The translations under genes and the position numbers were made by a program. A stretch of DNA of 45,423 nt from Acidobacteria bacterium 5-1 (GTDB taxonomy: Bacteria; Acidobacteriota; Blastocatellia; Pyrinomonadales; Pyrinomonadaceae), in NCBI GenBank assembly GCA_002050455.1, contig MWZA01000139.1, positions 1 to 45,423 of the forward strand. Direction: 5' to 3'. Below the pieces are notes generated by a model. That model did no database searches. It was given only the letters and a program-made list of their open reading frames with translations, and was not told the origin of the DNA. This document shows positions 889 to 44,254 of this stretch, in pieces. Numbering within the stretch: position 1 is the stretch's first letter; every line of letters begins with the position of its first letter.

Positions 889-969
889 TAGTGAAAAACT
901 AAAAGTGAAAAACTAAAAGTGAGTAGTGAATAATATTTTAGTTTTTCACTTTTAGTTTTTAGTTTTCGC
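889..969. repeat. Heptad-phased inverted repeat between the cupredoxin gene and cusA
   Basis: The left arm repeats 7-nt units such as AAAACTA and AAAGTGA, and the right arm (from about 935) repeats TTTAGTT/TTTCACT, so the two arms fold into a long AT-rich hairpin. It fills the gap between two operon genes and ends at the stop codon of the upstream one. It could act as an mRNA processing or weak termination site that lowers pump expression relative to upstream genes; that is inference. Confidence 0.75.
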
Positions 970-2229
970 TTACTGCACTAAAATTTTGCCTGTCATCATA
1001 TTCATTCCGCAGGCGAAAGCGAGTTCGCCCGCTTCCGTCGGCGTAAATTCAACCAAAATGGTTTCACCGACGGGCAACTTGCGCGTTACATTCAATTTTG
1101 GAAACACGACTTCGCCGCCGCAGTTATTAGCATCTGCACGGTAAAATGCGAGTTTGACGGGCTTGCCTTTTTCGACCTTGATTTGCGAAGGCTCGTAACC
1201 GTTGCCGCTGACTGTAACTTTAATTGCGTCCGGCGGCACAGATTGATTGTTGGCAGTTGTTGACTGTTCGCCTTTCGGCACGCGCACGACAAATGGCACG
1301 CTGATAACGTTGTTATTTCTTTGAAATTGCGCCCAAAGTTTATACAAACCGGCTCGCGGAAACGCGGTATGCGCCGAAACTTCCGACGCGCTTTCTTTGG
1401 TCGTCATGCCTTCCATTGTCGAATGGTCGTGTCCGCCGTCAGCGTGATTATCAGTTTGCTTGTCGTCCATTTTCACCGAATCCATTGATTCGCCTTTCGC
1501 CATCGGATGCGCGTGGACAAAATCCTTCATATCCTCGCTGATGATGACAAAGTGCGCGAGTTCGCCCAAATAGTTTTGCAAATCCGTCGCGGGTTTGTTT
1601 GTCTTCGCGTCAAAAGCCTGAAAATCGAGCGTCAATTCCTGTTCGGCTTTTATTCCCGCGCTCGGTTTCATCACGACGCGCAAGCCGTTAACCGTTTTTT
1701 CAAAACTCGCGTCCGGCTGTAAGGAAACTTTAGCGCGTTCCGTTCCGGCAACTTTTATATCAATTTGTTCGACGACTTGCACCGCCGCTTGAGGCGTGAA
1801 ATCGGCGTAAAGTTTATATTCGCCGCCGTTCGGAAATGTGTGCGAAACACGATAAGTTCCATCCGCTTGCTGTTCAGGATGAATGTGATAAAACTCCGCC
1901 AAATCACGAGAAACGATAAGCAAGTGCATCGGTTTTTCGTGAACAATTTGCAAATCTTTGACGGTTGTGCCCGCTTTGTCTTTAACACTAAAAGAAAGCA
2001 GTGTCGGCGTTCCCGCTTTTATTTCAGACGGTTCGCTTTTGAAATCAACTCGAAAAGTCCGATGCGAGTCAATCGTGGTCGGCGCGTCGTTCGTCGGCGC
2101 ATTATTCGTTACAACCGCCGTATCCGAGTTTTTGGCGGTTTCGGTTTGCATTACGTTATTGCAGCCCGCCAGCCACATTGCGCTCAATAAAAGCGCGATA
2201 ATTCCTGATAAAATAAATGTCTTTTTCAT
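970..2229 (-). CDS. Cupredoxin-domain lipoprotein of the metal efflux operon
   Basis: Predicted periplasmic lipoprotein: a hydrophobic signal ends in the lipobox LAGC with Cys23. Residues ~55-165 and ~185-325 are two related beta-rich domains, each with a histidine patch (MHLLIVSRDLAEFYHIHP and HFVIISEDMKDFVHAHP) and an ending FPxxGxYKLxAxF. Between them lies a His/Met-rich insert (HADGGHDHSTMEGM). The last ~85 residues look like a cupredoxin domain with NCGGEVVFP and FACGMNMMTGKI; the two Cys and the Met residues are candidate copper ligands. It lies between the adaptor gene and cusA, so a role in binding and handing over periplasmic metal is likely. Family assignment of the N-terminal repeats is uncertain. 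Confidence 0.8.
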   Translation of the reverse strand: MKKTFILSGIIALLLSAMWLAGCNNVMQTETAKNSDTAVVTNNAPTNDAPTTIDSHRTFRVDFKSEPSEIKAGTPTLLSFSVKDKAGTTVKDLQIVHEKPMHLLIVSRDLAEFYHIHPEQQADGTYRVSHTFPNGGEYKLYADFTPQAAVQVVEQIDIKVAGTERAKVSLQPDASFEKTVNGLRVVMKPSAGIKAEQELTLDFQAFDAKTNKPATDLQNYLGELAHFVIISEDMKDFVHAHPMAKGESMDSVKMDDKQTDNHADGGHDHSTMEGMTTKESASEVSAHTAFPRAGLYKLWAQFQRNNNVISVPFVVRVPKGEQSTTANNQSVPPDAIKVTVSGNGYEPSQIKVEKGKPVKLAFYRADANNCGGEVVFPKLNVTRKLPVGETILVEFTPTEAGELAFACGMNMMTGKILVQ

Positions 2230-2272
2230 AATTTTATGTTTCCTATCTCAAAAAATGCTTTATTCCCAAACT

Positions 2273-4246
2273 TTACGCCGAAGGCACAGTCGAACGAAGT
2301 TGATAAATGCCTTCGGTAACGACTCTTTCGCCTTCTTTCAATCCCGAATTAACTTCAAAATAATCTGCGCCTTCCGCACCTAACGCAACGGCACGTTTTT
2401 CAAATGTTTCGCCGCCGTCGAAAACAAAAACAAAGGTTTGTCCCTGCTCGGTAACGACTGCCGTTTTCGGCACGGCTAAAACCTGCCGTTCGCCGCTCGT
2501 GTCAACTGTCATTTCGACAAACATTCCGTCTCTCAAACGATTAAGCGGATTTATTACTTCATAAATAACCGGCACGGTGCGCGTCTGCTCATTCACCGTT
2601 TGCCCAATGGAAACAAGTCTGCCGTCGCCGTCGCCCGTGCCGATGGTATAAACTTCGCCATTCAAAGCCGCCGAAGTAAAATTCGCTCTGGTTGATTCGC
2701 GCACAACGGGCAAATCGCGCTCGAAAACTTGGGCTTCAAGCAGAACCATTGAAAGATTGACGATTGATAAAAGTTCCGTTCCCGCTTCAACCACTTGACC
2801 GCTCGTCGCTTTGATTTCGTTGACTACTCCCGTAATCGGCGCGGTTAAAGGAAAAGAGCGCGTCGGTTGATTGACACGCGGAGCGCGGAAAATGTTTTGT
2901 CCGGCGTTTGCTTGTTTGATTTGATTTTCTAACAGCACGACTTGTCTTTCCGCCGCCGTAACTTCCTGCTCGGCAACCCGCACGGCGGTGTTTGCTTCTT
3001 CCACGCGCCTTCGCGGAGCCGCGCCGACTTCCACTAGATTTTCCGAACGTCTTAATTCGCGTTGCGCTTGCGCCAGACGAGTTTTGGCTTGTTGTGCATT
3101 GGCGCGTTGTTCGGCTTGCTGTCCCTGAAGCGCAAGAGCCGTGTTTCTGAGTTCCAAACGCCGCGCTTCGATTTCGCGTTGCTGGGCTTCGACTTCGAGG
3201 CGTTGTGATTCGAGTTCGGTTTGCCCCGATACATCCAAAATCTGCTCAACCGTCCCGATTTGCTCGCCGCGCCCGACTGCCAAACCTAAGCCTAAACCTT
3301 GCCGTAAAATAATTCTGCCCGCAACCGGCGGCACAACGACAGCTTGTGCATCGGGACGCGCACGGACAATGCCCGTTGTTTTCAGTCCGCTGGTGATTTG
3401 TCTGGTTGTAACGGGCGCGGTTTTGATGCCGAACAAAATTTGTGATTCTTTTGGCACGGTCAAAACAGTTTCGGCTGTCAAAGCGTTGGGTTGTATTTCG
3501 GTTGTCGCATTCGCCGGAATTTCGGCAATCGTTCGTGTTTGGCGCGGCGGCAGAAAATATGCCAAAGCGAAAGTTCCAAAGGCAAAAAGCAAAATAGCGG
3601 CAATGGCAAGCGGCGCGAACTTTTTGAAATTGACGTTTCCGTTACGCTTTGCGGCAAAGAAAACCGCACCGAGCGCACCGAACGTCAGCAAACTCAAAAT
3701 CAAAAGCCCAATCCAAAACGAACGACGAATCGGCGCGGACACAACCGAAACAGGAAAATCAACCGAAAAACTGCGATTGTCGGCAGCCGCAACCGCGAAG
3801 ACGATTTTGTAATCGCCCGAACTTCCAAAAGTATAAGACAGGCGATAATTTCCATTTTCTTCCGCGACACTGGACAGATTTTCCGCAACCGGCGTTCCGT
3901 CGGCTTCGATAATATTTGCTGTTACGTTAGCTTTATCAAGCGGGGCGGGTTCGCTTCCGCCAAAACCGCCTTCAACCTTTTCAGCAAATCTCACAAGAAA
4001 CTGCGCGGTTTCGCCCGTGCGCGGGTCAGACGGCGAACGCCGCAAAACAACGCTGAATTGTCCGACATCGGTTTGCAGATTGCGCTCCGCCGTTACAATC
4101 GTAATGGGCGGATTCGCCGCGTCCGGCGTTGTGCCGTCTGTTTGGGCAAACGCGGAAATTGAAATGAGCAAACACCAAACGAAAGTCAACGCTATTAAGA
4201 AACGCTTTGACTTTGAATTATTCACTTTGAACTTTGAACTTTTCAT
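2273..4246 (-). CDS. RND efflux periplasmic adaptor (CusB/CzcB-like) with an N-terminal Ig-like domain and two membrane helices
   Basis: Membrane-fusion protein linking the inner-membrane pump to the outer-membrane channel. After a signal peptide (cleavage near AFAQ) comes a beta-rich domain of ~110 residues, then two hydrophobic helices (starting RRSFWIGLLILSLLTFGA and FAPLAIAAILLFAFG), and only then the usual adaptor: lipoyl/barrel half motif VVVPPVAGRIIL, a long alpha-helical hairpin (~residues 320-440, rich in Q, E, R), the second half (TSGQVVEAGTELLSIV) and the beta-barrel. At 657 residues it is far longer than the usual ~400. Its ATG overlaps the upstream stop by one base (TAATG). Its first residues MKSSKFKVNNSKSKR are encoded by a heptad repeat, so the exact start is less certain. 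Confidence 0.88.
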   Translation of the reverse strand: MKSSKFKVNNSKSKRFLIALTFVWCLLISISAFAQTDGTTPDAANPPITIVTAERNLQTDVGQFSVVLRRSPSDPRTGETAQFLVRFAEKVEGGFGGSEPAPLDKANVTANIIEADGTPVAENLSSVAEENGNYRLSYTFGSSGDYKIVFAVAAADNRSFSVDFPVSVVSAPIRRSFWIGLLILSLLTFGALGAVFFAAKRNGNVNFKKFAPLAIAAILLFAFGTFALAYFLPPRQTRTIAEIPANATTEIQPNALTAETVLTVPKESQILFGIKTAPVTTRQITSGLKTTGIVRARPDAQAVVVPPVAGRIILRQGLGLGLAVGRGEQIGTVEQILDVSGQTELESQRLEVEAQQREIEARRLELRNTALALQGQQAEQRANAQQAKTRLAQAQRELRRSENLVEVGAAPRRRVEEANTAVRVAEQEVTAAERQVVLLENQIKQANAGQNIFRAPRVNQPTRSFPLTAPITGVVNEIKATSGQVVEAGTELLSIVNLSMVLLEAQVFERDLPVVRESTRANFTSAALNGEVYTIGTGDGDGRLVSIGQTVNEQTRTVPVIYEVINPLNRLRDGMFVEMTVDTSGERQVLAVPKTAVVTEQGQTFVFVFDGGETFEKRAVALGAEGADYFEVNSGLKEGERVVTEGIYQLRSTVPSA

Positions 4247-4248
4247 TA
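4215..4248. repeat. Heptad repeat tract forming the 5' end of the adaptor gene
   Basis: Units ATTCACT, TTGAACT, TTGAACT, TTTCATT follow one another in strict 7-nt phase across the start codon of the adaptor gene. The tract encodes the unusual N-terminus KSSKFKVNNS. It has one arm only, unlike the two-armed copies elsewhere in the window. Confidence 0.6.
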
Positions 4249-4872: not shown

Positions 4873-4883
4873 TTTTATTTCCT

Positions 4884-6431: not shown

Positions 6432-6446
6432 TCTGAATTTTTTCGG

Positions 6447-7293: not shown

Positions 7294-7453
7294 CTTTATA
7301 AAATGAAAATGCAAGACGGAATTTTGCTTGTATTGGAAGAAAGCCAAAAGAGAGGAATTTATTATAGTAGAAGTGAGAAAAAGCTGGATTTGTTTTTGTC
7401 TTAACAGTTAGACGCGAGATAAGAAAAAGTGTTAAGTGTTTGCAATTGAGTGC

Positions 7454-9159: not shown

Positions 9160-9168
9160 CTTTAAAAA

Positions 9169-9248
9169 ATGATAAGTGAGAAGTGAGAAGTGAGAAGTTA
9201 AATTGTTTTTTACTTTTCACTTTTCACCTTTCACTTTTCACTGTTCTC
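9169..9248. repeat. Heptad-phased inverted repeat between rbfA and nrnA
   Basis: Tandem AGTGAGA units (9174-9199) face tandem TTTTCAC-type units (9211-9242), forming a long imperfect hairpin in the intergenic gap. It reaches the last codons of rbfA. Confidence 0.78.
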
Positions 9249-9606
9249 ATTCCTTTTCAATAAATTCCGCTTCCGGCGTTAAATCTTTCAGAAGTTCATC
9301 GACGCGAATCGCGTTTTCTTCGACCGTATCGCGGACGAAATTCAAAACCGGCGCGTGGCGCAGGTCAAGGTCTAACGCAACTTGCTGCCGGACAAAAGTG
9401 GCGGCGTGCTGTAATGCTTTGAGTGCTTCTTTAGTTTCCTTTTCGTCCCCTTGGACAATGACAAAAACTTTTGCTTCGCGCAGGTTGTCCGACACACGGA
9501 CATCAGTTACGGTAACGGCTATCAGGCGCGGGTCGTCAAGTTCGTAGCCGACGATTTCCGTAATTTCCGCGCGTAATGTTTCTGCTAATCTTTCGGGTCT
9601 TCTCAT
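9247..9606 (-). CDS. rbfA: Ribosome-binding factor A
   Basis: Late 30S maturation factor that binds near helix 1 and helix 44 of 16S rRNA. The 119-residue KH-like protein shows the family order MRRPERLAETLRAEITEIV, DDPRLIAVTVTDVRVSDNLREAKVFV, ALQHAATFVRQQVA and DLRHAPVLNFVRD. Its ATG at 9606 overlaps the stop codon of the decayed toxin gene by four bases (ATGA), so its translation may once have been coupled to the toxin frame. Normally it follows infB directly; here a toxin-antitoxin remnant lies in between. Confidence 0.96.
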   Translation of the reverse strand: MRRPERLAETLRAEITEIVGYELDDPRLIAVTVTDVRVSDNLREAKVFVIVQGDEKETKEALKALQHAATFVRQQVALDLDLRHAPVLNFVRDTVEENAIRVDELLKDLTPEAEFIEKE

Positions 9607-10100: not shown

Positions 10101-10107
10101 AAATTTA

Positions 10108-10177
10108 ATGCAAAATGGAAAATTGAAAATGCAAAATTATAAAACATTTTCCGCTTTCCATTTTTAGTTTTACATTT
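10108..10177. repeat. Heptad-phased inverted repeat between infB and the antitoxin gene
   Basis: AAATGGA/AAATTGA/AAATGCA units (10113-10140) oppose TTTCCGC/TTTCCAT/TTTTAGT units (10148-10175), giving an AT-rich hairpin that abuts the infB stop codon. Confidence 0.72.
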
Positions 10178-12949
10178 TTATAGCTCGGTCGGCGCGATTT
10201 TCTCAATCGTGAACGCTTCGATTTCATCATTTGCCTTGATGTCGTTGTAATTGACCAGACCGATTCCGCATTCAAAACCTTGGCGGACTTCGCTCGCATC
10301 GTCTTTAAATCGTTTGAGCGAATCAATATCGCCTTCCCAAACGACGACATCATCGCGGATAAGCCGCGCTTTTGCCTGCCGCCTGATAATGCCGTCGGTT
10401 ACGCGGCAACCGGCGACCGTGCCGACTTTTGAAACTTTGAACACTTCCAGAACAAGAGCTTTGCCCAGAATTGTTTCCTTTTCAACCGCGTCAAGCATTC
10501 CAATCATCGCGGCGCGGATTTCTTCTTCAACCTTATAAATGATTGAGTGCAGACGAATATCAACATCTTCCTGTTTGGCAGTATCAACGGCACGCGCTCC
10601 GGGACGCACGTTGAAGCCGATAATGACAACGGCAGTCGAGGCTTGGTCGGCTTGCGTCGCCGAAGCGAGCAGAACGTCCGATTCGGTAATTGCGCCGACG
10701 CCTGAACGAATCACGCGCACCTTTACTTTTTCGGTTGAAAGTTTTTCAAGCGTAGATTTGAGAACTTCAACCGAACCCTGCACGTCGGCTTTTAAGAGAA
10801 CCAGCAATTCTTTGACTTCGGCGAGTCCAAGCGATTCGATACCGCGTTTGGTTGTCTTGAGCATCGCCACATTTCGGGCGTGAATCTGACGTTGGCTGGC
10901 AATAGTTTGCGCTTTATCAATATCGGAAACCACTTGAAAAGTGTCGCCCGCTTGCGGAACGCCCTGCAGACCGAGAACTTCGACAGGTGTTGCGGGCGGT
11001 GCTTCGATTACTATTTCGCCGCGGTCATTGAACATTGCGCGAACCTTACCGTAAAATTGTCCGACAATAAATGGGTCGCCGACTCTCAGAGTTCCCTGCT
11101 GAACCAAAACGGTTGCAACCGAACCGCGACCTCTGTCAAGTTTGGCTTCCAAAACAACGCCCGAAGCGCGGCGCGTCGGACTTGCCTTCAAATCCAAAAT
11201 GTCGGTGGACAATAAAACTGTTTCGAGCAATGTATCAAGATTTTCGTGCTGTTTGGCAGAAACCGACACCATTTCCGTTTCGCCGCCCCATTCAATCGGC
11301 TGCAGACCTTGACCAGCCAATTCTTGTTTAACTTTGTCGGGATTTGCGCCGGGTTTGTCAATTTTGTTAATTGCGACAATAATCGGAACGTCCGCCGCTT
11401 TTGAGTGGTCAATGGCTTCAATCGTCTGCGGCATCACGCCGTCGTCAGCCGCGACCACCAAAATCACCACGTCCGTCGCTTTTGCACCACGCGCCCGCAT
11501 GAGCGTGAAGGCTTCGTGTCCGGGCGTGTCGAGAAAAACAACGCGCCGTTTTTCTTCCGCGTTGTCGGGATTCGGCACAAAAACGCTGTATGCACCGATA
11601 TGCTGCGTGATTCCGCCCGCTTCGCCTTCGGCAACATTGTCGGAGCGAATCGCGTCAAGCAGCGAAGTTTTACCGTGGTCAACGTGACCCATGACAGTTA
11701 CAACCGGCGGGCGCGGCAGTTCGACATCATCGCTGTCCGCCGCAATCAGTTCTTCAAACTCTTGCTCAATAACCATTTCTTCAAACGGCACAAAGCTAAC
11801 ATCGTAACCGAGCGTTCTGCCCAATTCCAATCCCATAGCGTCGCCGATTGGCTGGTTAAGCGTAGCAAAAATGCCGCGTTTGACGAGCAATTGGACAATA
11901 TCACGCGGCGTAACGCCGAGGGCTTCGGAAAATTCGCGGATGGTTGCGCCTTCGGTCAAACGAACAGCCTTGAGTTTTCCCGTTTCAACCTCGCCAACTT
12001 GGTCGAGAATACGTTCCTCGATTGAGCGCGGACGCGGCGCGGCAAAATCCCTTTCTTCAAACCTGCCGCCTCTGTCTTCAAATCTCTTGCCGGTTTTCTT
12101 GCCGCTTGAACGTCCAAACTTTTTGCGTTGGTCAACCGGCGGCGTGTAAGTAATTTTCGGCGTGGCGGTTTCGCCCGGTGTTGCGCGCAGTTCCGGCTTG
12201 CGTCCGCCCCGTCCGTCGAGGCGCAATTCTCTTTTGGGTTTTTCGATTTTATCGGTTTTTAACTTTCCGGTTTTGGTCGGAGTTTCGCTGGTAAAACGGT
12301 CGCCGACCTTAACACCCGCATCCCGCGCTTCTTTGGTTAAAGTAAGTTGTTTAACCTGCGTTCCGGTCGGGCGAAGAACTCTGGTTGCGGTTTTTGATTC
12401 TTTGGACTTTTCGGGCAGTTCCGCTTCAGCCTTAATTTCTTCCGCCGCTTCTACTTTTTCCTGCGGTTTTTCAGCTTCCTCAATTTCGGCTGGTTCTTCA
12501 ACAACCGGCGATTTTTCTTCTTCCAGAGGCTTTTCTTCCTGCGGAACTGCTTCGACCTTTTTTTGAAGTTTTCTGACTTTGCGAACAGTTTGGGCGGATT
12601 TATCTTCTTCGACGACGGGCGTGGCGGCTGTTTTTTCTTTCTTTTTCGGGATAATTTCCTGCGGTTGCACTTGCGGTTCGGCTTCAACCTGCGGAGTTTC
12701 TACTTCTTCTGCGGGTTTTTCCGCTTTCGCAATTTCTTTCTTTTTGATTACCTTGATTATCCGCTTCGGTGCCGCATCGACCTTTGGGAAATACTTATTG
12801 CGAACCTTATCCGCCAGCTCTTTACTGATGGAGTTGGACGGTACGGACACATCTGCGCCTTCACGCCGCAAATCTTCAATAACGCGCTTTGTGTCTTGTT
12901 TGATTTCTCGTGCCAAGTCGTAAATCCGAACTGTTGTTCCTACGGACAT
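10178..12949 (-). CDS. infB: Translation initiation factor IF-2
   Basis: GTPase that places initiator tRNA on the 30S subunit and promotes subunit joining. The 923 residues start with an IF2_N module ([25 protein letters not shown]), then a ~300-residue charged linker rich in Lys, Glu and Pro, a second IF2_N-like motif ([24 protein letters not shown]), and the G domain with GHVDHGKTS (~residue 421), DTPGHEAF and NKID, followed by domains II-IV. All G motifs are intact. It lies 87 bp after nusA in the conserved rimP-nusA-infB operon. Confidence 0.97.
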
Positions 12950-14585: not shown

Positions 14586-15092
14586 CTAACCATTTTCCAC
14601 TTTCCGTTTTTCGTTTCTCTTAAGCTCTTTCTCTAAATCAATTTCCAAATTTGCCTTGACAACTGCGCTATATGGAAAGCGCACATTCCCTTTTGTCTTA
14701 TCGTCAAAAATAATTTCTTCGCCTTCGACACCGACGATGCGCCCGCGAAAGTTCTTTTGTCCGTTAATCGCCGTTTCGGTTTTAACTTTCGCTAAGTTTC
14801 CGGCAAATTTTTCAAAATCTTTCAGGTTGTAAAGTCCGCGCTCCAAACCGGGCGAGGAAACTTCCAGCGTGTAAGTCAATGCAACAATGTCTTCCGCATC
14901 AAGAACCGCTTCCATCTGCCGGCTGACCAGCACGCAATCTTCGTGCGTTACACCGCCTTCCTTATCAATAAAAACGCGCACCGTCAAATTTCTCTTTGTG
15001 CCGACAACTTCCGCGTGAACAAATTCTAAACCGTTTTCTTCTGCCGCCCGTGCAGCGATTTTCCTGATTTGTTCGTCAATTGAATGAATCAT
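14586..15092 (-). CDS. rimP: Ribosome maturation factor RimP
   Basis: Needed for 30S assembly. N-terminal domain with AEENGLEFVHAEVVG and VRVFIDKEGGVTHEDCVLVSRQMEAVLD, then the signature LEVSSPGLERGL, then an SH3-like C-terminal domain (GRIVGVEGEEIIFDD). It is the first gene of the nus operon. The end, KRNEKRKVENG, is encoded by a heptad tract (plus ~14590-14625), so the C-terminal tail seems to have been supplied by the repeat. Confidence 0.93.
   Translation of the reverse strand: MIHSIDEQIRKIAARAAEENGLEFVHAEVVGTKRNLTVRVFIDKEGGVTHEDCVLVSRQMEAVLDAEDIVALTYTLEVSSPGLERGLYNLKDFEKFAGNLAKVKTETAINGQKNFRGRIVGVEGEEIIFDDKTKGNVRFPYSAVVKANLEIDLEKELKRNEKRKVENG
14590..14625. repeat. Single-arm heptad tract at the rimP 3' end
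   Basis: Units ATTTTCC, ACTTTCC, GTTTTTC, GTTTCTC run in 7-nt phase through the last codons of rimP. Same style as the other heptad elements but without a visible second arm. Confidence 0.5.
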
Positions 15093-22310: not shown

Positions 22311-22371
22311 AGTGGTCAGTAGTCAGTGGTTGGTGGTCAGTTTTTCGTGGACCGACGACCAGCGACCGCTT
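22311..22371. repeat. Heptad-phased inverted repeat before oppB
   Basis: AGTGGTC/AGTAGTC units (22311-22340) oppose CGTGGAC/CGACGAC/CAGCGAC units (22346-22368). It touches the end of the coiled-coil gene and lies within the opp operon. Confidence 0.7.
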
Positions 22372-25087: not shown

Positions 25088-27022
25088 TTATGATTCGCCG
25101 CCGGTCTTTTCCGGTTGCCAATTATAATTAATCCTGACATTTTTGAGCGAAGGCGCGTCCAAAGTATTAATTTCAAAACCCAAAATATATGGCTTGACTA
25201 AAGAATAAGAAGTCGGAAAATAAAGCGGAATGGCGGGCAGTTCGGCAAGTGCTTCGTCTTCGGTCAAAATCGCGCCGTTTTCTTCCATATTTTCAAATGT
25301 TCCCAAAGCTAAATTTTCATTGTCGAATGTTTCACCTTTTATTTGTTCGGAAACATTTTCGTTATTTTTCGGTTTTTCAATTTTTGACGTTTCATTTTCT
25401 TTATTTTTCTTCGCCGTTTTCGTTTCGGCTGCTGATTCTTTCGACGGAAAAATCGCCAGCATATTCGCTGCTTCGTCCGTTGTCGGGAGAACCACGCCGC
25501 GCCGTATCATATCAAATTCACCCGTTTTTTTCGCCGCTTCAATCTCGTCTGTTTCTTTGACTGTAATTTCCGTTTCGATATTCAGATTGTCCTTCCACAT
25601 CTTTGCTACGCTTCGTGCAATGCGCTGCTGCATATTGTTGCGATTAATCAATAATTTAATTTTCGGGAAATTTTCACTGTTGGGAAAACCCGCTTCCGTC
25701 AAAAGATTTTTTGCGCGTTCCGTGTCTTGCCTAAGTTTTATTTTAGTTTCTTCGTCAAACGGCGAAAAACTCAGCGCAGGAAGGCTTGCGCCGTCCATCT
25801 CGTCCTCGCTTAAACGCTCGCGCTCAATTGCAATCGCCAACGCTTCACGCACTTGACGGTTATCAAACGGCGCATTTTCCCGATTAAATTCGTAAAAATT
25901 CAATGCGCTGTGCATTGTGCGCTCAAAATCATCGTAAGGCGTGAGAAGTTTCAACGCCAGCGGTTCAAAATCTACATTGGTAATCGCGTCAACTTCACCT
26001 TTGCGATACGCATCCAACGCCTTTTCAGCATTTTCCGTCGGCACAAATCGCACTCTTTCAAGTTCAATTTTCCCGCTGTTCCAGTAGTGTTCGGCGCGGT
26101 CAAGCGTGATGCCGTCCTGCCCGACGCTAAAGACGCGAAACGCGCCGCTTGTAACAATATCAGCGTTTAATTTATCGCCTTCAAACTCCTTGCCGTCGCC
26201 GTAAATCGGACGGAAAATCGGGTGCGCGACCAGCGCGGGAAAGTCTTTATCAGGCTGAACGAGCGAAATTTTCAATGTGTAATTGTCAATGGCTTCCACG
26301 CCAAATTTCGTTCCGGGTTTGGTTTCTTTCTTTTCAGTAATTTTCGTTTTTACTTCTGTTTCAGATTTTTTATCGGCTTCCGATTGTTTCGGCGGCAGAG
26401 CTGGTTTTATTTCCGTTTTTTGCGCCGTGTTTGGATTCGGTTTTTTGAAAATTTGCGGAAGGTCTTGATTAAATGGAGATTTAGGAGATAAATCTGGTTC
26501 TTCCGATTCTTGAGGCGGCGTTTCTTCCTTTTCCGCAACCTGCATTCCGACGATATTGTTGAGTAATTTATAATGCGAAACTTTGTCGCCCATCTTCGCC
26601 AGACGTTTCCAGGAGCGCACGAAATCTTTTGCCGTAACCTGCTCGCCGTTTGACCATTTAGCATCGCGCCGAAGCGTGAAAGTCCAAATCTTATTATCGC
26701 CGGAAGCCGCCCAATCAACCGCAATCGCCGGAATAGTTTCCAAAGTTTTCGGATTTGTGTCGGTCAAACCTTCATAAATAGCGCGGACAACATCGGTTTC
26801 GGGCGGCGCGGCGGCGAGCGCGGGGTCAAATGATTTCGGCATTTTGCCGTTGTTCCAGCGAAATTCTTTTTTCGGCGGCGGCGCGGTTTCGGCGTAAAAA
26901 GGTTCGGGCTGCGGTTTTTCAAGTTCGGCGCAGGCAGTAATGAGCAGCACCAATATAACCAAACACAATTGTAACGGATAATTAATGGACAATTTATAAT
27001 TTTTCTCTTTAAAATTTTTCAT
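25088..27022 (-). CDS. Second peptide/solute-binding lipoprotein (SBP_bac_5)
   Basis: Same family as OppA. From ATG 27022 (MKNFKEKNYKLS) a signal leads to the lipobox ITAC (Cys31). Then KEFRWNNGKMPKSFDPALAA, DVVRAIYEGLTDTNPKTLETIPAIA and KWSNGEQVTAKDFVRSWKRL. Like the neighbour, it has a long Pro/Glu/Lys-rich insert (~residues 165-240) right before GVEAIDNYTLKISL, and a second lysine/asparagine-rich insert near residues 535-590. The frame can also start at GTG 27043, which overlaps the coaE stop (TAGTG); the codons between are heptad-repeat sequence. It probably shares the permeases encoded downstream or serves a different peptide range. Confidence 0.85.
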   Translation of the reverse strand: MKNFKEKNYKLSINYPLQLCLVILVLLITACAELEKPQPEPFYAETAPPPKKEFRWNNGKMPKSFDPALAAAPPETDVVRAIYEGLTDTNPKTLETIPAIAVDWAASGDNKIWTFTLRRDAKWSNGEQVTAKDFVRSWKRLAKMGDKVSHYKLLNNIVGMQVAEKEETPPQESEEPDLSPKSPFNQDLPQIFKKPNPNTAQKTEIKPALPPKQSEADKKSETEVKTKITEKKETKPGTKFGVEAIDNYTLKISLVQPDKDFPALVAHPIFRPIYGDGKEFEGDKLNADIVTSGAFRVFSVGQDGITLDRAEHYWNSGKIELERVRFVPTENAEKALDAYRKGEVDAITNVDFEPLALKLLTPYDDFERTMHSALNFYEFNRENAPFDNRQVREALAIAIERERLSEDEMDGASLPALSFSPFDEETKIKLRQDTERAKNLLTEAGFPNSENFPKIKLLINRNNMQQRIARSVAKMWKDNLNIETEITVKETDEIEAAKKTGEFDMIRRGVVLPTTDEAANMLAIFPSKESAAETKTAKKNKENETSKIEKPKNNENVSEQIKGETFDNENLALGTFENMEENGAILTEDEALAELPAIPLYFPTSYSLVKPYILGFEINTLDAPSLKNVRINYNWQPEKTGGES

Positions 27023-27046
27023 TTTCCACTTTCCGTTTTCCACTAA
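27015..27046. repeat. Heptad tract at the start of the second binding-protein gene
   Basis: TTTTCAT, TTTCCAC, TTTCCGT, TTTCCAC in 7-nt phase. On the minus strand it supplies GGAAAGTGGAAAATG, so the repeat itself provides a purine-rich site and start codon. It also covers the last bases of coaE. Confidence 0.6.
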
Positions 27047-28139: not shown

Positions 28140-29084
28140 TTAATTCTCTTTTAATCTTCTCATCTTCGCGGCTTCAACCGTATTTTTCATCAACATTGCC
28201 ACCGTTAAAAGTCCGACGCCGCCGGGAACAGGCGTAAATGCACCGGCTTTTTCCATCGCCTCTTTTGGGTTCACGTCGCCGACCAATGTAAATCCGCGTT
28301 TTTCGATTGTTTTTAAACGCTTTTCAATTTCAGATTCGTCAAAAAATTCTCGCGCTAAATCTTTATCCGAAAAATTGTTGATGCCGACATCAATCACGAC
28401 TGCGCCTTGTTTGATATGTTCGCCGCCAATAAAACCGGCACGCCCGATTGCCGCTACTAAAATATCAGCTTGGCTCGTAATTTCCGCCAGATTTTTCGTG
28501 CGCGAATGGCAAATCGTAACAGTCGCGTTTTCCCGCAGCAAAAGCATCGCCATCGGTTTGCCGACAATATTACTTCGTCCGACAATAACCGCGTGTTTTT
28601 CGGCGATTTCGATGTCGTAATATCTCAAAATTTCAATTACGCCCGCCGGAGTGCAAGGCACAAGCGCGTTTTGTCCGCTTGCCAATCGTCCGACATTGAC
28701 CGGATGAAAACCGTCAACATCCTTTTCTGGATTTATCGTTTCTAAAATTTCCTTTTCGTTTATTTGTTTCGGCAGCGGCAACTGTACAAGAATTCCGTCA
28801 ACATCGTCGCGCCGATTCAATTCTTGAACCAAATTGAGTAGTTCTTCCTGCGTAGTTTCCGCCGGAAGATGTCGGTGTTCGGAAATTAAACCAAGTTCTT
28901 CGCTCGTTCTGACTTTATTGCTGACATAAACCTTTGATGCCGCATCTTCACCGACGCGCACCGCCGCCAGACACGGGCGAAAAGGCAAATTTCTAACTTC
29001 TTCAGCGACTTTGCCCTTAATTGCCTCAGCAACTTCTTTTCCGCTCAAAATCTTTGCGCGTTTTTTTATCGTTTCTGCTATCAT
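28140..29084 (-). CDS. folD: Methylenetetrahydrofolate dehydrogenase/cyclohydrolase
   Basis: Bifunctional enzyme that interconverts 5,10-methylene-, methenyl- and 10-formyl-tetrahydrofolate with NADP. Seen: RPCLAAVRVGEDAASKVYVSNKVRTSEELG with the Tyr/Lys catalytic region, DGILVQLPLPKQINEKEILETINPEKDVDGFHPVN (the family signature), VIVGRSNIVGKPMAMLLL (Rossmann part) and KAGAFTPVPGGVGLLTVAML (C-terminal signature). Length 314 is slightly long. It is divergent from the transglycosylase gene, 49 bp away. Confidence 0.96.
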   Translation of the reverse strand: MIAETIKKRAKILSGKEVAEAIKGKVAEEVRNLPFRPCLAAVRVGEDAASKVYVSNKVRTSEELGLISEHRHLPAETTQEELLNLVQELNRRDDVDGILVQLPLPKQINEKEILETINPEKDVDGFHPVNVGRLASGQNALVPCTPAGVIEILRYYDIEIAEKHAVIVGRSNIVGKPMAMLLLRENATVTICHSRTKNLAEITSQADILVAAIGRAGFIGGEHIKQGAVVIDVGINNFSDKDLAREFFDESEIEKRLKTIEKRGFTLVGDVNPKEAMEKAGAFTPVPGGVGLLTVAMLMKNTVEAAKMRRLKEN

Positions 29085-29133
29085 AATTCAAGTTTTTGTT
29101 TCTTTATTTAGCTTACAACGGTTTTATTATTTT

Positions 29134-31644
29134 ATGCTACAAGTCAATTTATCAAAGTTGTTTCTTTTCATTTTCGTTTTTTCGCTTTCGATTTCCGCTC
29201 AGAATTTAACCGAAGCACATCAAAAAATCCAAAACGCGGTTGGAAATCGAGATTATCAAACCGCGATTGACCAATTGCAAAACCTCGAAAAATCCGACAA
29301 AAAAAATTTCACACCCAACAATTACGATTATTTGCTGGCGCGAATGGCGGAGAAGCGCGATGATTTTGCGCTTGCCGCAACAAATTATCAAGCAGTTGCA
29401 AATCGCAATTCGGTTTTGAGTGAATACGCGCTGTGGCATCTTTCACAGATTGCCCGCGCTTCGGGAAATCTGATGCTTGAAAGAATTTATTTGCAGAAGA
29501 TTTTGACGCTTGCGCCCGAAAGTCTTTTGAGCGACGCGGTTAAGATGCGAATGGCGCGAAGCTATTTTGAAAGCAAAAATTTTGATGTGGCGATTCAACT
29601 GCTTATTGATCAGCAGTCGGCAATCGGCAGTCGGCAGAATACAACGAACAACGAACAGCGAACAACGAACATTGCACAAAACCGCGAAATCCAAGTTTTG
29701 CTCGGCGAAGCGTATTTGCAAAACAATCAAATTCCGCAAGCGCGTCAGGTTTTTACGAAATTAACCAACAATCTTCCGAATCCGGCGCAACCTGACGATT
29801 TTGCGCTGGCGGGCGCGAAAAATCTTGATTTGCTTGACGGCGGAAAAGAAAATTTTGGCAAAAACGCGCCGCAGCTAGCTGACACGGAACATTACCGGCG
29901 TGCTTTGATTTATCAATTTAATCGCAATTTTCCGCTGGCGCGTTTGCATTTTCAAGCAATTGTCGAACGCTTTTCAACAAGTAATTATGTTGCTGCCGCG
30001 CTTTATCAAATCGGACGCGGTTACGCGCAGGAAGGCAATTTCGCTCAGGCGATTGGTTGGTTTGAGCGCGTCCAAGCCGAATTTCCCGATGACCTGATTG
30101 CCAGAGACGCTTTGAGTCAAACGGCTTCGGCTTACGCTCGTGTCAACAAATCGAAAGAAGCGATTTCGCGTTATCAAAAATTTATCCAAACTTATTCGGA
30201 TGCCGACAATCTGGAACGCGCTTATTTAAATATCGTGGACGTTTTGCGCGATACCGGCGAAGATTTTGAAGCCTTAAAGTGGACGGCAAAAACTCAGGCA
30301 GATTTTAAAGGGAAACTTCCTGAATCGCTCGCGCTTTTTGCCCAGGCGCGAATTCATATTTCACGAAATGATTGGACAAACGCGCTTTCGGATTTAAACA
30401 TTTTGCTGATGTTTCCCGATTTGGGCGGAACGAGAGTTCCGGGCGGCACAAACAAAGCCGAAATTACTTTTTTGAAGGGTTTCGCATTGGAAAATCTCAA
30501 ACGCTATAACGAAGCAATTGACACTTATCTTTTGATTCCTGACGGGCGCAGCGAGTATTACGGCTGGCGAGCAACTGAAAAATTAGAAGCGTTGGCGAAT
30601 GACGAGCAAACAAGGCGTTTTATCACGAAAAAAATAGGCGAATTAACAACAAATATCGAAGTCAGAAATGCCGAAGCACAGAGAAAAGCCGCGCAAGCCG
30701 TCCTGCGTTTGACAGACGCGGCGGAAATTCGCAGTAAAATGTTGGCGATCGTCCGAAAAAGTTATCCGCAGCTTCCCGATTATCAAAAAATTCCAAGCGG
30801 AAAACTGCTGGAATTCGGTCGCAAAGAAATTTTGAAGGAAAAACGCGATTCTGCAAATGAGAATTATCACAAAACTTTAGCCGACGAACTTTTATTTTTG
30901 GGACTTTATGACGAAGGAACACCTGAACTTGAAATCAGTCAACAGTCAACAGTCAACAGTTATCAGAACGACGGACAAAATAATCCAAAATCCAAAATCC
31001 AAAATCCAAAGTCGAATGATTTAGCTTATACTTTGGCTGTCTTTTACAAACGCGGCGAGATGGCAAACCGCGCTGTCGCGTATATCGAACCGCTTTGGCG
31101 AAATGTTCCCGCTGATTACCAACTCGAACTGATTCCGCGCGAGCAAATTGAACTGCTTTATCCAATGCCTTACGCCGATTCGCTTTTGAAGCTTGCGCCT
31201 GAAAAAAATGTTGACCCGCGTTTTATCTTAGCGATTATGCGGCAGGAATCGCGTTTTCGCGCCGAGGTCAAATCCAACGCGGCGGCACGCGGCTTGATGC
31301 AGTTTATTTCGACCACCGCCAATCAAATCGCATCGGAACTTGGGCGCGAAGATTTCAAACAAGATGAACTTTATAATCCGCCGACGGCAATTCTTTTCGG
31401 TTCGCAGTATTTATCGAATTTGTTCAAGCAATTTCCCAACCAACCGGCGGCAGTCGCGGCAAGCTATAACGGCGGCGAAAATAATATGATGCGATGGCTG
31501 GCGCGTGCCGAATCAGATAATCCCGACCGCTATGTTCCCGAAATTATTTATTCACAGTCGAAAGATTATGTTTATAAAGTGATGGCGAATTACCGTGTTT
31601 ATCAGATGTTTTATGACGAGAAGTTAAAATCGAATTCACGTTAA
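29134..31644 (+). CDS. slt: Soluble lytic murein transglycosylase (SLT domain) with TPR-like superhelix
   Basis: Cleaves peptidoglycan glycan strands to anhydro-muropeptides in the periplasm. I chose ATG 29134 (MLQVNLSKLFLFIFVF, signal peptide ending SISAQ); an open frame upstream reads into folD. Most of the 836 residues form helical TPR-like repeats (A-x-Y-x-x-G, for example AALYQIGRGYAQEGNFAQAIGWFERV). The SLT domain near the end has RQESRF with catalytic Glu705, SNAARGLMQ-type NAAARGLMQFI, and AVAASYNGGENNMMRWL. Two inserts (residues ~160-180 and ~602-627) are translated repeat sequence. The protein is a typical family member otherwise. Confidence 0.92.
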   Translation: MLQVNLSKLFLFIFVFSLSISAQNLTEAHQKIQNAVGNRDYQTAIDQLQNLEKSDKKNFTPNNYDYLLARMAEKRDDFALAATNYQAVANRNSVLSEYALWHLSQIARASGNLMLERIYLQKILTLAPESLLSDAVKMRMARSYFESKNFDVAIQLLIDQQSAIGSRQNTTNNEQRTTNIAQNREIQVLLGEAYLQNNQIPQARQVFTKLTNNLPNPAQPDDFALAGAKNLDLLDGGKENFGKNAPQLADTEHYRRALIYQFNRNFPLARLHFQAIVERFSTSNYVAAALYQIGRGYAQEGNFAQAIGWFERVQAEFPDDLIARDALSQTASAYARVNKSKEAISRYQKFIQTYSDADNLERAYLNIVDVLRDTGEDFEALKWTAKTQADFKGKLPESLALFAQARIHISRNDWTNALSDLNILLMFPDLGGTRVPGGTNKAEITFLKGFALENLKRYNEAIDTYLLIPDGRSEYYGWRATEKLEALANDEQTRRFITKKIGELTTNIEVRNAEAQRKAAQAVLRLTDAAEIRSKMLAIVRKSYPQLPDYQKIPSGKLLEFGRKEILKEKRDSANENYHKTLADELLFLGLYDEGTPELEISQQSTVNSYQNDGQNNPKSKIQNPKSNDLAYTLAVFYKRGEMANRAVAYIEPLWRNVPADYQLELIPREQIELLYPMPYADSLLKLAPEKNVDPRFILAIMRQESRFRAEVKSNAAARGLMQFISTTANQIASELGREDFKQDELYNPPTAILFGSQYLSNLFKQFPNQPAAVAASYNGGENNMMRWLARAESDNPDRYVPEIIYSQSKDYVYKVMANYRVYQMFYDEKLKSNSR
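29611..29673. repeat. Nine in-frame heptads inside the transglycosylase gene (first insert)
   Basis: CAGCAGT, CGGCAAT, CGGCAGT, CGGCAGA, then ATACAAC, GAACAAC, GAACAGC, GAACAAC, GAACATT: 63 bases in strict 7-nt phase, exactly 21 codons, encoding QQSAIGSRQNTTNNEQRTTN. It lies in a loop between TPR-like helices. The frame is kept because nine units equal a multiple of three. Confidence 0.85.
30931..31014. repeat. Twelve in-frame heptads inside the transglycosylase gene (second insert)
   Basis: GAAATCA, three GTCAACA, GTTATCA, three diverged units, then AAAATCC repeated and AAAGTCG; 84 bases in one 7-nt phase, 28 codons, encoding QQSTVNSYQ and NPKSKIQNPKS. The same translated motifs occur in cyanobacterial heptanucleotide repeats. 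Confidence 0.85.
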
Positions 31645-33400: not shown

Positions 33401-33938
33401 AAATCGCTTTTCCGAGTTCGGGAATAATATAGAGAAGCCACCACAAAAATACTTGAACCGCCAATACTACAAAACTCAGCCCGAAACTGATAAGCGCGAG
33501 TTTGCGTCCGCCCAAATGCGGCTGGCGAAGTGACACAAAATAACCGAAGCCGCCGACCAGAAAAGTAAAAGGAATAAACAAAATTCCCAAATAAGGCACG
33601 AGCGAATAAACAAAACATGCCCAAGCCATCTGCGAAGCCGAATTTTCGTTTTGCTTAAATAAATCCGTAATTTCTTCTCGCGGCGGCGCGTTTTCGATTA
33701 GAAAAGACTGCCCTTGCAAATGATGAGCCGAGCGCAAAGTGTCGAGTGGTTGATAACCTTCGCGCAAAAGTTTTCCGCAAACCAGACAAAATTTTGCATC
33801 GTCGCGCTGCGCCGCCGCGCCGCACGCGGAACAAATTATTTGAACCGGAAGCGGAAAATTGAAAGTGGAAAAATTTTTGTAATCTATCTCACGTTCCTTA
33901 TTTTCCGTTTTCAATTTTTCGTTTTCCATTTCTTTCAT
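33399..33938 (-). CDS. Zinc-ribbon membrane protein next to NurA
   Basis: A short Zn ribbon, CSACGAAAQRDDAKFCLVCG (two CxxC pairs), is followed by a linker and by membrane helices (MAWACFVYSLVPYLGILFIPFTFLVGGFGYF and ISFGLSFVVLAVQVFLWWLLYI). The N-terminal ~30 residues (ENEKLKTENKEREIDYKNF) are encoded by a heptad inverted repeat (plus 33846-33935), so the original start may have been closer to the ribbon. The ATG overlaps the nurA stop by four bases (ATGA). Function unknown. Confidence 0.7.
   Translation of the reverse strand: MKEMENEKLKTENKEREIDYKNFSTFNFPLPVQIICSACGAAAQRDDAKFCLVCGKLLREGYQPLDTLRSAHHLQGQSFLIENAPPREEITDLFKQNENSASQMAWACFVYSLVPYLGILFIPFTFLVGGFGYFVSLRQPHLGGRKLALISFGLSFVVLAVQVFLWWLLYIIPELGKAI
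33846..33935. repeat. Heptad inverted repeat encoding the N-terminus of the zinc-ribbon protein
   Basis: AGCGGAA/AATTGAA/AGTGGAA (33849-33870) opposes TTTTCCG/TTTTCAA/TTTTTCG/TTTTCCA (33901-33930). The whole hairpin is inside the reading frame just after the start codon. Confidence 0.65.
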
Positions 33939-37932: not shown

Positions 37933-38120
37933 ATAGGACTTTCTCACTGGGAGCGCGGGCATCTTGCCCGCAAAGATTGCGTCAGCAATTTCAACCGTTT
38001 GAATTAAATTCAACGTCAGCTTTAGCTAAAATCTTTGATGCCGCTCACGCGACGTTTGCGGGCAAGATGCCCGCGCTCCGACAAGAAACGCTTTTTTATT
38101 AAAATTTGAGAAAGTCCTAT
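37933..38120. mobile_element. 188-bp MITE-like element with nested inverted repeats
   Basis: Perfect 14-bp terminal inverted repeats ATAGGACTTTCTCA (37933-37946) and TGAGAAAGTCCTAT (38107-38120). Inside, a 25-bp perfect inverted repeat starts GGAGCGCGGGCATCTTGC (37950-37974) with its complement at 38055-38079. The flanks both read TAG (37930-37932 and 38121-38123), a possible target duplication. No gene inside. It lies between two convergent genes. Confidence 0.8.
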
Positions 38121-42356: not shown

Positions 42357-44180
42357 TCAAACTGACGTTACCTTATCTTCCGTGATTTTTATTCCTAATT
42401 CGTCCAACTGCGCCGCGTCAACCGCGCCCGGCGAATCCATCATCAAATCCTGCGCCGAAGCGGTTTTCGGAAACGCGACGACATCGCGGATGTTTTCCGT
42501 GCCTTGAAGGAGCATCACAATTCTTTCGATTCCGGCGGCAAAACCTCCGTGCGGCGGAGTTCCGTACTCAAGCGCGTCAAGAAAAAATCCGAATCTGCTC
42601 CGCGCTTTTTCCGGCGTTAAACCGAGAGCTTTGAAAATCAAGTTTTGGATTTCGCGTTGGTGAATGCGAATCGAGCCGCTGCCGATTTCGTAACCGTTGA
42701 TGACAATATCATAAGCGCGGGCGCGGATTTTCCCCAACAATTCTTTCTCGCCGTCTTCAATGGCGCGTTTAAAAAGCGGCACGTCTTCGTCCATCAGAGA
42801 TGTGAACGGATGGTGCATCGCGTCATAATTCCCCGTGTCTTCGTTATATTCAAACATCGGAAATTCCGTTACCCAAAGCGGTTTATAGGCATTTTTCGGA
42901 ATCAGATTTTCGCGTCGTGCAATTTCATTTCGCAACGCTCCTAAACTTTGCGCGACAACCGATTTTTTGCCCGCGACAATCAAAACTGCATCGCCCTTTT
43001 CGGCTTCGGTTGATTTTGCAAGCTGCTCGATTTTTTCTTGTCCGAGAACTTTCAAAAGCGAAGAAGTCGTTTCTTCGCCGAGTTTTATCCAAGCAAGCGC
43101 GGACGCGCCGTAACGCTTAATAAATTCCTGCAATTCATCAAGCTGTTTGCGTGAATAATCGGCTTTGCCACGCGCGACGATACATTTTATCGCGCCTTTA
43201 TTTTTTAATGTTTCCGCAAACGGCGCAAAATCCGTGTCTTTTAATTCGTCCGACAAATCTTTGAGTTCCATTTCAAAACGCAAATCCGGTTTGTCGCTTC
43301 CAAAACGGCGCATCGCATCGGCATAAGTCATTCGCGGAAAAGGTGTTTCAAAATCGGCTTCAACCAGCGCGAAAACTTGTTTCAAAACGCCTTCCATCGT
43401 CCGAAAAACCATTTCCTGATTGGCAAAACTCATTTCAATATCGAGCTGTGTAAATTCCGGTTGCCTGTCTGCCCGCAAATCTTCGTCGCGGAAACAACGC
43501 GCAATCTGATAATATTTATCAAAACCGGCAATCATCGTGATTTGTTTGAGAATCTGCGGCGATTGCGGCAGCGCAAAGAATTTTCCCGTGTGAATACGCG
43601 ACGGCACAATAAAATCGCGTGCGCCTTCGGGCGTAGATTTCAACAAAATCGGCGTTTCAATCTCCAAAAAACCGTTTAATTCCATAAACGCACGAATTTT
43701 GCTCAAGGCTCTCGCCCGCATCATCAGATTTTGCTGAAGGCGCGGACGGCGCAAATCTAAAAAACGATATTTGAGGCGCGTGTCTTCGCTTGCAAGATTT
43801 TGATTTCCGGCTGCTTCGAGTTCAAACGGCAAAGTTTTTGCATCATTCAAAACAAGAATTTTGCTTGCTTTTACTTCAATTTCGCCCGTCGGGAGTTTTT
43901 TGTTTATCGTTCCTTCTTCGCGTCTTATCACTTCGCCAAGGACTGCGACGACAAACTCGCCGCGCAGATTTTTCGCTTTCGCGTGCGCTCGCTTTGCATC
44001 TTCTTCGCTGACAACAATCTGTGTCAAACCTTCGCGGTCGCGCAAATCAATAAACGTAAAAATACCGAAGTCGCGTTTTTTCGCCACCCAACCCATCAAA
44101 ACAACTTCTTCACCGACATCTTCGGCGCGAAGTTCGCCGCACGAATGCGTCCGTTCCAAATTTCCCAAAACATCTAACAT
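42357..44180 (-). CDS. aspS: Aspartyl-tRNA synthetase, bacterial type
   Basis: Charges tRNA-Asp. OB-fold anticodon domain at the N-terminus ([48 protein letters not shown]), then class II motif 1 ([14 protein letters not shown]), motif 2 ([24 protein letters not shown]), a bacterial GAD insertion domain (~residues 290-420), and motif 3 ([13 protein letters not shown]). I chose ATG 44180 ([15 protein letters not shown]); the open frame upstream is translated repeat. The C-terminus matches the fragment at 40827-40945. Whether it is discriminating or not cannot be told. Confidence 0.96.
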
Positions 44181-44185
44181 AAAAT

Positions 44186-44254
44186 AGTGATAAGTAATAA
44201 GTGATGAGTGATAAGTGAAAGATTTCACTTATCACTCATCACTTATCACTTTTT
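44186..44254. repeat. Heptad-phased inverted repeat upstream of aspS
   Basis: AGTGATA, AGTAATA, AGTGATG, AGTGATA (44186-44213) face TTATCAC, TCATCAC, TTATCAC (44229-44249): a near-perfect hairpin immediately before the aspS start, and so in its mRNA leader. Confidence 0.8.

What the first reader, a model, noticed from the sequence alone, without database searches (positions are those of the whole stretch)
889..44254. A family of heptamer-phased inverted repeats in gene junctions, gene ends and inside a gene
At least eleven places (889-969, 4215-4248, 9169-9248, 10108-10177, ~14590-14625, 22311-22371, 27015-27046, 29611-29673, 30931-31014, 33846-33935, 44186-44254) show tandem 7-nt units in one strict phase, mostly as two facing arms. 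The unit sequence differs between copies (AGTGAGA, AAAGTGA, AGTGGTC, AAATGGA, AGTGATA), so copying is not simple; what is conserved is the 7-nt period and hairpin form. Cyanobacteria have heptanucleotide short tandem repeats (STRR), including CAACAGT and CCAAAAT units seen here. Such a density in a non-cyanobacterial-looking genome, and its mechanism of spread, seem worth study.
Basis: partly seen in the sequence, partly recalled or inferred. Interest (0 to 1): 0.8.

Follow-up and report, generated by a model that had tools for sequence, protein, structure and literature searches.

The report
Seven-letter repeat hairpins between genes
A bacterium of the Acidobacteria and some of its relatives carry many short runs and hairpins built from seven-letter DNA words at the ends of genes and inside some genes; the word at a given place can change between close relatives while the seven-letter rhythm stays, which suggests that DNA copying itself may keep making and spreading them.

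Summary
The core observation holds. The window (Pyrinomonadaceae, Acidobacteriota) has 10 strongly 7-periodic stretches; 100 dinucleotide shuffles average 0.04, at most 1. Ten of the eleven named places are solid, 33846-33935 is weak. Only 5 of 11 are facing arms; the in-gene ones do not fold. In 507 kb of readable own-genome DNA, lag 7 gives 71 stretches and each of ten other lags 0-7.

The typical hairpin spans ~77 bp (arm ~29, loop ~21) and starts at the upstream stop codon between genes on one strand. Many plain arrays lie inside ORFs as open linkers. The same junction carries different words in different genomes. Against a congener (flanks ~9% diverged), 15 shared sites show point change, one exact 7-nt indel, word swaps and one clean absence. 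Arms are mirrored copies without G-U bias. Three sampled genomes have different dominant words. RAYT-type transposases do not track arrays in the few genomes compared.

Best reading: a sequence-independent, replication-borne repeat (slippage in sevens, fold-back template switching, array-to-array copying). The dispersal step is inferred. Heptamer arrays are known elsewhere; this is a many-word variant.

The parts
889..969 (.). facing-arm hairpin, alternating heptamers GTGAAAA / ACTAAAA, just 3' of ORF 970-2229 (-)
   Evidence: TRF; arm 25 of 25; lag 7 0.57, 0/500 shuffles; DNA fold z -9.0; similar hairpins at other G007 places, 79-83% over 69-78 nt
4205..4248 (.). single array (CTTTGAA) at a junction of codirectional genes (HlyD-like ORF 2273-4246 / ORF 4246-4872, both -)
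   Evidence: does not fold significantly
9163..9249 (.). facing-arm hairpin (GTGAGAA / TTTTCAC) between rbfA and the DHH gene (both -)
   Evidence: fold z -3.4; ungapped orthologue in congener G007, array 10/87 against flank 21/296 substitutions
10104..10178 (.). facing-arm hairpin (AAAATGG/AAAATGC family) between infB (IF-2) stop and next start (both -); 74 bp absent from G007
   Evidence: 10 further matches in the own genome, the 7 examined are hairpins alike in the arms
14589..14625 (.). single array (AAATGGA) over the rimP stop / nusA start overlap
22311..22371 (.). array (GTGGTCA) with a degenerate second stretch between permease ORF and ORF 22370-22699 (both -); facing arms doubtful
   Evidence: no fold
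27014..27046 (.). single array (TTTCCAC/TTTTCCG) at start of SBP_bac_5 ORF / coaE stop (both -)
29609..29674 (+). in-gene pair of direct arrays (GTCGGCA then ACAACGA) in the TPR/SLT gene; open in sense, does not fold
30930..31019 (+). second in-gene pair of direct arrays (CAACAGT then CCAAAAT) in the same gene
29011..31644 (+). host gene: TPR repeats plus SLT transglycosylase domain, 877 aa
   Evidence: Pfam
33846..33935 (.). weak facing arrays (AAGTGGA / TTTTCCG) at junction ORF 33399-33938 / NurA ORF (both -)
   Evidence: lag 7 0.43, 2/500 shuffles; inverted arm 20 of 24; fold z -1.9
44185..44258 (.). near-perfect facing-arm hairpin (AGTGATA / TATCACT), upstream of aspS, divergent context
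   Evidence: arm 28 of 29; fold z -10.5

Best explanation
These are copies of a sequence-independent, period-locked repeat that lives on DNA replication. Short runs of one 7-nt word, often as a 60-110-bp fold-back pair, sit where they do least harm: right after stop codons between genes on one strand, or as stop-free linkers in genes. Once present, a run is rewritten in place by slippage in steps of seven and, in hairpins, by the growing strand switching to the other arm, which keeps arms mirrored and units alike. Words also pass between runs elsewhere in the genome (copying between short similar arrays), so the slot persists while its word changes and lineages differ in favourite words. No dedicated enzyme and no host function are needed. 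Shown: period, places, in-place change at shared sites, mirrored arms, lineage-specific words. Inferred: replication as the agent, array-to-array copying, lack of function.
For: Period 7 stands alone in inverted-repeat arms found without regard to period: lag 7 0.434, lag 14 0.481, other lags 1-20 0.26-0.32, over 317 inverted repeats; 40 of 63 with arms of 25 or more are 7-periodic. Arms are mirrored: in-register identity 0.898 against 0.776 one unit off, better in 42 of 48. Mismatches are mutation-like (132 of 220 transition type against 143 of 472 in chance in-gene inverted repeats) with no G-U excess (58 G.T, 74 A.C). Against congener G007: 15 shared sites, array substitutions 153/893, flanks 389/4344, one exact 7-nt indel, word change in place at 3 sites with close flanks and 2 of doubtful orthology (my reading of the alignments), one 74-nt absence. 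Identical-word pairs within a genome are 9-17 times letter-shuffled in three genomes. (CCAAAAT)3 in 9 of 9 congeners, 5 of 15 other family genomes, 4 of 15 other class genomes; reversed control 2 matches in all. Template switching that homogenises inverted-repeat arms is an established process in yeast (PMC8604942, abstract).
Against: Why seven is unexplained beyond the polymerase-contact idea of Mrazek 2007 (seen only as cited in PMC4692102 and PMC4679880). Array-to-array copying was not seen happening; word changes could also be loss plus new insertion, and the two L122/L304 sites have 15-20% flank divergence and may be paralogous. The unit-permutation mirror test is significant only in sum (4 of 48 hairpins singly). 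The G-U test has little power if arms are young. Patchiness between genera (54 of 80 public nusA loci have no lag-7 stretch) suggests some heritable factor. A frequent end (AAAATCG after (AAAATCC)n) hints at defined elements.
Confidence: 0.45

Rival explanations
1. Small non-autonomous mobile elements (MITE-like) moved by a dedicated transposase, recombinase or reverse transcriptase that recognises fold-back form or period rather than sequence.
For: Fairly uniform size (median span 77, middle half 70-90), starts within 25 nt of the upstream stop in 52 of 60; clean presence/absence of 74 bp at one junction; lineage-specific word bursts; 10 further matches to the window's AAAATGG hairpin in the own genome, the 7 examined being hairpins alike in the arms.
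Against: No conserved terminal sequence seen for the 18 words aligned apart from the AAAATCG end; words differ from copy to copy; no target-site duplication shown; plain arrays without facing arms spread as well; Y1_Tnp (RAYT-type) present in 35 of 41 family genomes but with no match in array-bearing G017 and G013 and with 9 and 13 matches in array-poor G015 and G020.
Confidence: 0.22
2. Functional RNA elements: intercistronic mRNA hairpins or all-frame stop signals kept by selection, for mRNA stability, translation uncoupling or termination.
For: Sits between stop and start codons of operon genes in many genomes; stop codons per 7 nt above shuffles in 5' arms, 0.57 against 0.45.
Against: Mismatches in sense RNA are not biased to G.U (58 against 74 A.C; with arms of 20 or more 45 against 66); stop codons are raised in 3' arms too (0.36 against 0.25) and 17 of 54 5' arms hold none; 13 of 41 loci have the infB/rbfA junction with only 2-9 nt and no array; in-gene arrays do not fold; no Rfam match in the window.
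Confidence: 0.13
3. Purely local origin: each array arises by slippage from its own junction sequence, with no transfer between sites; shared words reflect a mutational grammar.
For: Words share a grammar: few 4-nt palindromes (17% against 34%), TGA/TCA-rich; the upstream stop codon is often in register with the array (my reading); words at one junction in different genomes are somewhat alike (distance 1 or less in 10.7% of 645 pairs against 3.8% of 2016).
Against: Composite 14-mers recur at several loci of the congener G007; exact (CCAAAAT)3 at 15 sites of the own genome and 39 of G003 but with no match in 21 of 30 non-congeners (my count of its list); in-place word changes.
Confidence: 0.13
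4. Heptamers are laid down by a telomerase-like reverse transcriptase from an RNA template.
For: Strict period and phase; words that change between lineages.
Against: 38 distinct words among 71 arrays of one genome, so one template cannot serve; no reverse transcriptase search was run.
Confidence: 0.03

Closest known systems
GGGAATC / GGGGA(T/C)T heptamer repeats of Xanthomonas and Nostoc (Rehm 2015, PMC4692102; passages and section 10 read)
   Same: 7-nt units, four units commonest, facing pairs (70 cases among 186 patterns in Xcc), mostly intergenic, nearer to the upstream ORF, length and sequence differ between species
   Different: one G-rich word type per genome there; here 38 words in one genome sample and none of those G-rich words, words differ at fixed sites between congeners, many in-gene copies
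P6b stem-loop of the trnL group I intron of Nostoc (PMC4476775; section 18 and passages read)
   Same: two facing arms of degenerate heptamers; two unrelated 7-nt motifs replace one another wholesale at one site
   Different: one locus in a folded intron where the RNA stem may matter; here dispersed genome-wide without G-U signature
TAACTGA repeats of Beggiatoaceae (MacGregor 2015, PMC4679880; abstract, part 1 of section 5 and passages read)
   Same: intergenic heptamers near start codons; TAACTGA itself occurs here (L007, L138)
   Different: there one word, nearly all direct repeats, related heptamers rare; spread mechanism also unknown
Long simple sequence repeats with heptamer excess (Mrazek 2007; not held, known through PMC4692102 and PMC4679880)
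   Same: 7-nt is the commonest long unit in most genomes surveyed; slippage proposed
   Different: no facing arms, mirrored copying or site-by-site word turnover in what I could read
REP / RAYT palindromes (PMC3733652, search listing only; RAYT link recalled)
   Same: short palindromes in extragenic DNA
   Different: REPs keep a tagged sequence; none found here, and Y1_Tnp does not track the arrays

Membership tests
Heptanucleotide long simple sequence repeats / STRR | tandem 7-nt units above chance | tested here: met
Heptanucleotide long simple sequence repeats / STRR | mainly intergenic | tested here: inconclusive
   75 of 81 7-periodic hairpins with arms of 20 or more outside genes; but 43 of 71 own-genome arrays mostly inside greedy ORFs, whose starts may be over-extended
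Xanthomonas/Nostoc G-rich heptamers | word GGGAATC or GGGGAYT | tested here: not met
   none among 84 words
REP/RAYT | conserved palindrome sequence | tested here: not met
   84 words in 152 arrays; no shared core in the 18 words aligned
REP/RAYT | cognate Y1 transposase distribution | tested here: not met
   against array counts; six genomes compared
MITE | conserved terminal inverted repeats | tested here: not met
MITE | target-site duplication | tested here: inconclusive
   one clean presence/absence; no unambiguous duplication
Intrinsic terminators | GC-rich stem plus T run | tested here: inconclusive
   none of 44 terminator-like sites in window 1-20000 lies in the five arrays there, but the scan allows loops of 3-8 only
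Known structured RNA family | Rfam covariance match | tested here: not met
   0 matches in the window at gathering scores

The most novel reading that the evidence does not exclude
What is inherited at a site is a slot (period seven, phase, arm layout), while its word is overwritten from a genomic pool of competing heptamer words: a sequence-independent replicator that copies array onto array, shapes gene junctions and protein linkers, and recurs in several bacterial phyla.
Probability: 0.3. Interest if true: 0.85.

Novelty: new variant of a known kind. Interest (0 to 1): 0.6.

Why it matters
Heptamer repeats have been noticed in bacteria for years without a mechanism (PMC4692102, PMC4679880). 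Orthologous sites in related genomes turn the question into one that can be measured: rates of 7-nt slippage, arm copying and word swap, and whether a gene controls them. If no enzyme is needed, replication itself generates a dispersed, self-spreading repeat that rewrites intergenic hairpins and protein linkers quickly.

Tried and rejected
All-frame stop signal: units often carry TGA/TAA/TAG and 7 is coprime with 3, but 17 of 54 5' arms have none and 3' arms are raised too. RNA stem under selection: no G-U bias. RAYT carrier: not supported. First reading of the 10108 hairpin as a fresh insertion: withdrawn, because G001 carries a decayed relative after IF-2, so the G007 absence may be a loss. 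Viral carriage: (CCAAAAT)3 in 19 stretches of viral contigs, no control run, not pursued. Unit similarity by junction is real but slight in the mean (2.86 against 2.99 differences). Facing arms at 22311: seen by eye, not borne out. Papers by Mrazek 2007 and Elhai 2008 not held.

Rows dropped: L001, L002 (pieces of the window) and 14 overlapping or unreadable loci before the word count (which failed before counting; repeated); L058-L082 left out of the junction counts and of the hairpin set; L137 (G005) at SLT site 1, where the anchor match was spurious, and loci lacking an anchor (L136, L138 at site 1; L142 at site 2); low-complexity stretches of period 1-3 filtered from lag counts other. The inverted-repeat set includes one overlapping pair (L048, L153) and three unreadable loci; none of these gave a 7-periodic row (for the pair).
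Full report
WHAT IS THERE. The window is contig 223 of a 3.2-Mb draft genome whose closest named relatives in one scan are Pyrinomonadaceae, Acidobacteriota. Genes include rimP-nusA-infB-rbfA-DHH, an oligopeptide ABC operon, coaE, folD, a TPR/SLT gene, nurA and aspS. Tandem Repeats Finder and a lag test both find period-7 arrays. The window has 10 stretches at lag 7; 100 dinucleotide shuffles average 0.04 and never exceed 1; 10 of the 11 named places beat all of 500 local shuffles, 33846-33935 does not (2 of 500). Five of the 11 are facing arms; 22311, the three single arrays and the two in-gene places do not fold significantly.

GENOME-WIDE AND PHYLOGENETIC RANGE. In 41 sampled own contigs or stretches (513,658 bases, 506,901 readable) lag 7 gives 71 stretches, the lags 4, 5, 6, 8-13 and 15 give 0-7 each. 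Other genomes of the family differ: G022 39 in 185,481 bases, G108 17 in 296,269 bases taken without regard to hits, G015 2 and G020 4 in 119,900 each. Over the window and 80 public nusA loci, lag 7 gives 83 against 0-22 for ten other lags; 54 of the 80 public loci have none. Arrays or hairpins also occur outside Acidobacteriota, e.g. L068 Nitrospinota and L072 Alphaproteobacteria. The pattern (AAGGATG)3 occurs in 6 of 119 genomes of the phylum, reversed control 0.

ANATOMY. A scan for inverted repeats that knows nothing of period found 317 in 82 loci; their arms repeat at lag 7 (0.434) and 14 (0.481), other lags from 1 to 20 lie at 0.26-0.32; of 63 with arms of 25 or more, 40 are 7-periodic. 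In a merged set of 602 inverted repeats, 81 are 7-periodic with arms of 20 or more: 60 between codirectional genes, 8 convergent, 7 divergent, 6 in genes; median span 77, arm 29, loop 21; in 52 of the 60 codirectional cases the hairpin starts within 25 nt of the upstream stop (genes by a greedy ORF caller; this set includes 5 stretches of G108 chosen for AAGGATG hits). In 13 of 41 loci the infB/rbfA junction is only 2-9 nt and has no array.

ARRAYS IN GENES. In the own genome 43 of 71 arrays lie mostly inside greedy ORFs, 40 of them in ORFs of 200 aa or more, 14 of the 43 within 20 aa of an end; the caller over-extends starts, so some are really upstream of genes. They are open in sense and encode linkers such as NPKSKIQNPKSK or NNEQRTTNNEQRT. 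In the TPR/SLT gene two linker sites were compared: of the congeners with sound anchors, 4 of 4 carry 7-periodic DNA at site 1 and 5 of 6 at site 2 (the sixth is 8-periodic), against 0 of 13 orthologues of other genera at either site. The words differ between congeners.

TURNOVER. Congener G007 is 88-89% identical in this gene. At 15 array sites with both flanks found in held G007 DNA, substitutions are 153/893 in arrays and 389/4344 in flanks (the own side held 90 lag-7 stretches, some overlapping). The rbfA/DHH hairpin aligns without a gap; one hairpin differs by exactly one 7-nt unit (L360/L284); one array is identical over 44 nt (L356/L348); the hairpin at 10104-10178 is missing as 74 nt in G007. 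At some sites the word itself differs in place (reading of the alignments): G against T at the same position of all four units at SLT site 1, a CCAAAAT against a CAAAGGA-type array at SLT site 2, CAACGAA against CCAAAAT in L202/L344, and two changes in L122/L304, whose flanks are 15-20% diverged. The 10104 hairpin has a decayed relative in G001, so the direction is open.

WORDS. In 114 loci, 152 arrays use 84 words; identical words in different genomes occur in 90 pairs against 16 +- 4 for letter-shuffled words. Words avoid 4-nt palindromes (17% against 34%) and favour TGA/TCA, which may explain part of the sharing. Within genomes, identical-word pairs are 3.1% (G000), 8.3% (G022) and 9.3% (G108, whose sample includes 5 of 20 stretches chosen for AAGGATG) against 0.3-0.6% shuffled; between G000 and G022 1.2% against 0.24%. 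(CCAAAAT)3 is in 9 of 9 congeners, 5 of 15 other family genomes and 4 of 15 other class genomes; (ACAACGA)3 only in G000, G004 and G007 of 39. At one junction in different genomes words are within one change in 10.7% of 645 pairs against 3.8% of 2016 pairs for different junctions; 13.5% of 89 pairs for different junctions of one genome. So words spread within lineages and are also inherited in place.

LEVEL OF ACTION. Arms match best in register (0.898 against 0.776 one unit off, 42 of 48); shuffling unit order lowers the mean match from 0.903 to 0.882 (0 of 200 shuffles reach it), though only 4 of 48 hairpins are significant singly. Mismatches are 60% transition type against 30% in chance inverted repeats, with 58 G.T and 74 A.C in sense orientation (p 0.19). 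This is what DNA-level copying followed by mutation gives; a conserved RNA stem should favour G.U. If arms are young the test has little power. Y1_Tnp does not follow arrays in the six genomes compared; no Rfam match in the window.

INTERPRETATION. Slippage in sevens and arm copying by template switching account for mirrored arms, unit homogenisation and phase conservation. Shared lineage words, composite 14-mers at several loci of G007 and in-place word changes call for transfer between arrays, which I infer. Junction and linker bias is read as tolerance. Why seven is open; slippage favoured by the length of DNA held by the polymerase was proposed by Mrazek 2007 (read only as cited in PMC4679880 and PMC4692102).

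KNOWN WORK. Facing heptamers in Xanthomonas and Nostoc (PMC4692102), TAACTGA repeats (PMC4679880) and the Nostoc trnL P6b stem with repeated wholesale replacement of one 7-nt motif by another (PMC4476775) are the nearest. In the listings of searches of the held library I saw no report of these arrays in Acidobacteriota and none of many-word turnover at orthologous junctions; the listings are capped and most subscription papers are not held.

Noticed in passing
window 28039-28137; L115 3760-3789 and 12907-12989; L116 584-696; L121 2876-2942; L132 2909-2990: Facing-arm hairpins of the same build with periods 8-10 (CGCAGAGA, CACGAATTA, CACAGATAAA words), rarer than period 7 in the own-genome sample.
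   Followed up: partly
L010 (infB/rbfA junction): A period-9 facing pair (GAGTCTAGC) at the junction where some relatives carry heptamer hairpins.
   Followed up: no
L118 2976-3135: A 7-nt-word hairpin nested in the loop of an 8-nt-word hairpin (GCAAAGAC ... GCGTCTCT).
   Followed up: no
L019 16364, L032 190, L036 1951, L054 16049, L159 8980; window 37950-38079: REP/MITE-like palindromes alike between loci (GTCAGAACCRCCTGCGGTAGCG type; GGAGCGCGGGCATCTTGCCCGC type in the window, similar in L116 851), a separate family.
   Followed up: no
L202 1591-1712 / L344: Arrays directly before a pilin-like start of a gene (GFTLLELII by my reading of the DNA), word different between congeners.
   Followed up: partly
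L299-L346 (G007): (AAAATCC)n arrays often end in AAAATCG and many lie a few nt before an ATG.
   Followed up: partly
window 22466-22525: Three 21-nt tandem copies within a short ORF.
   Followed up: no
window 970-6431: Cupredoxin, CusB/HlyD-like and outer-membrane efflux genes next to each other, probably a metal efflux cluster.
   Followed up: no
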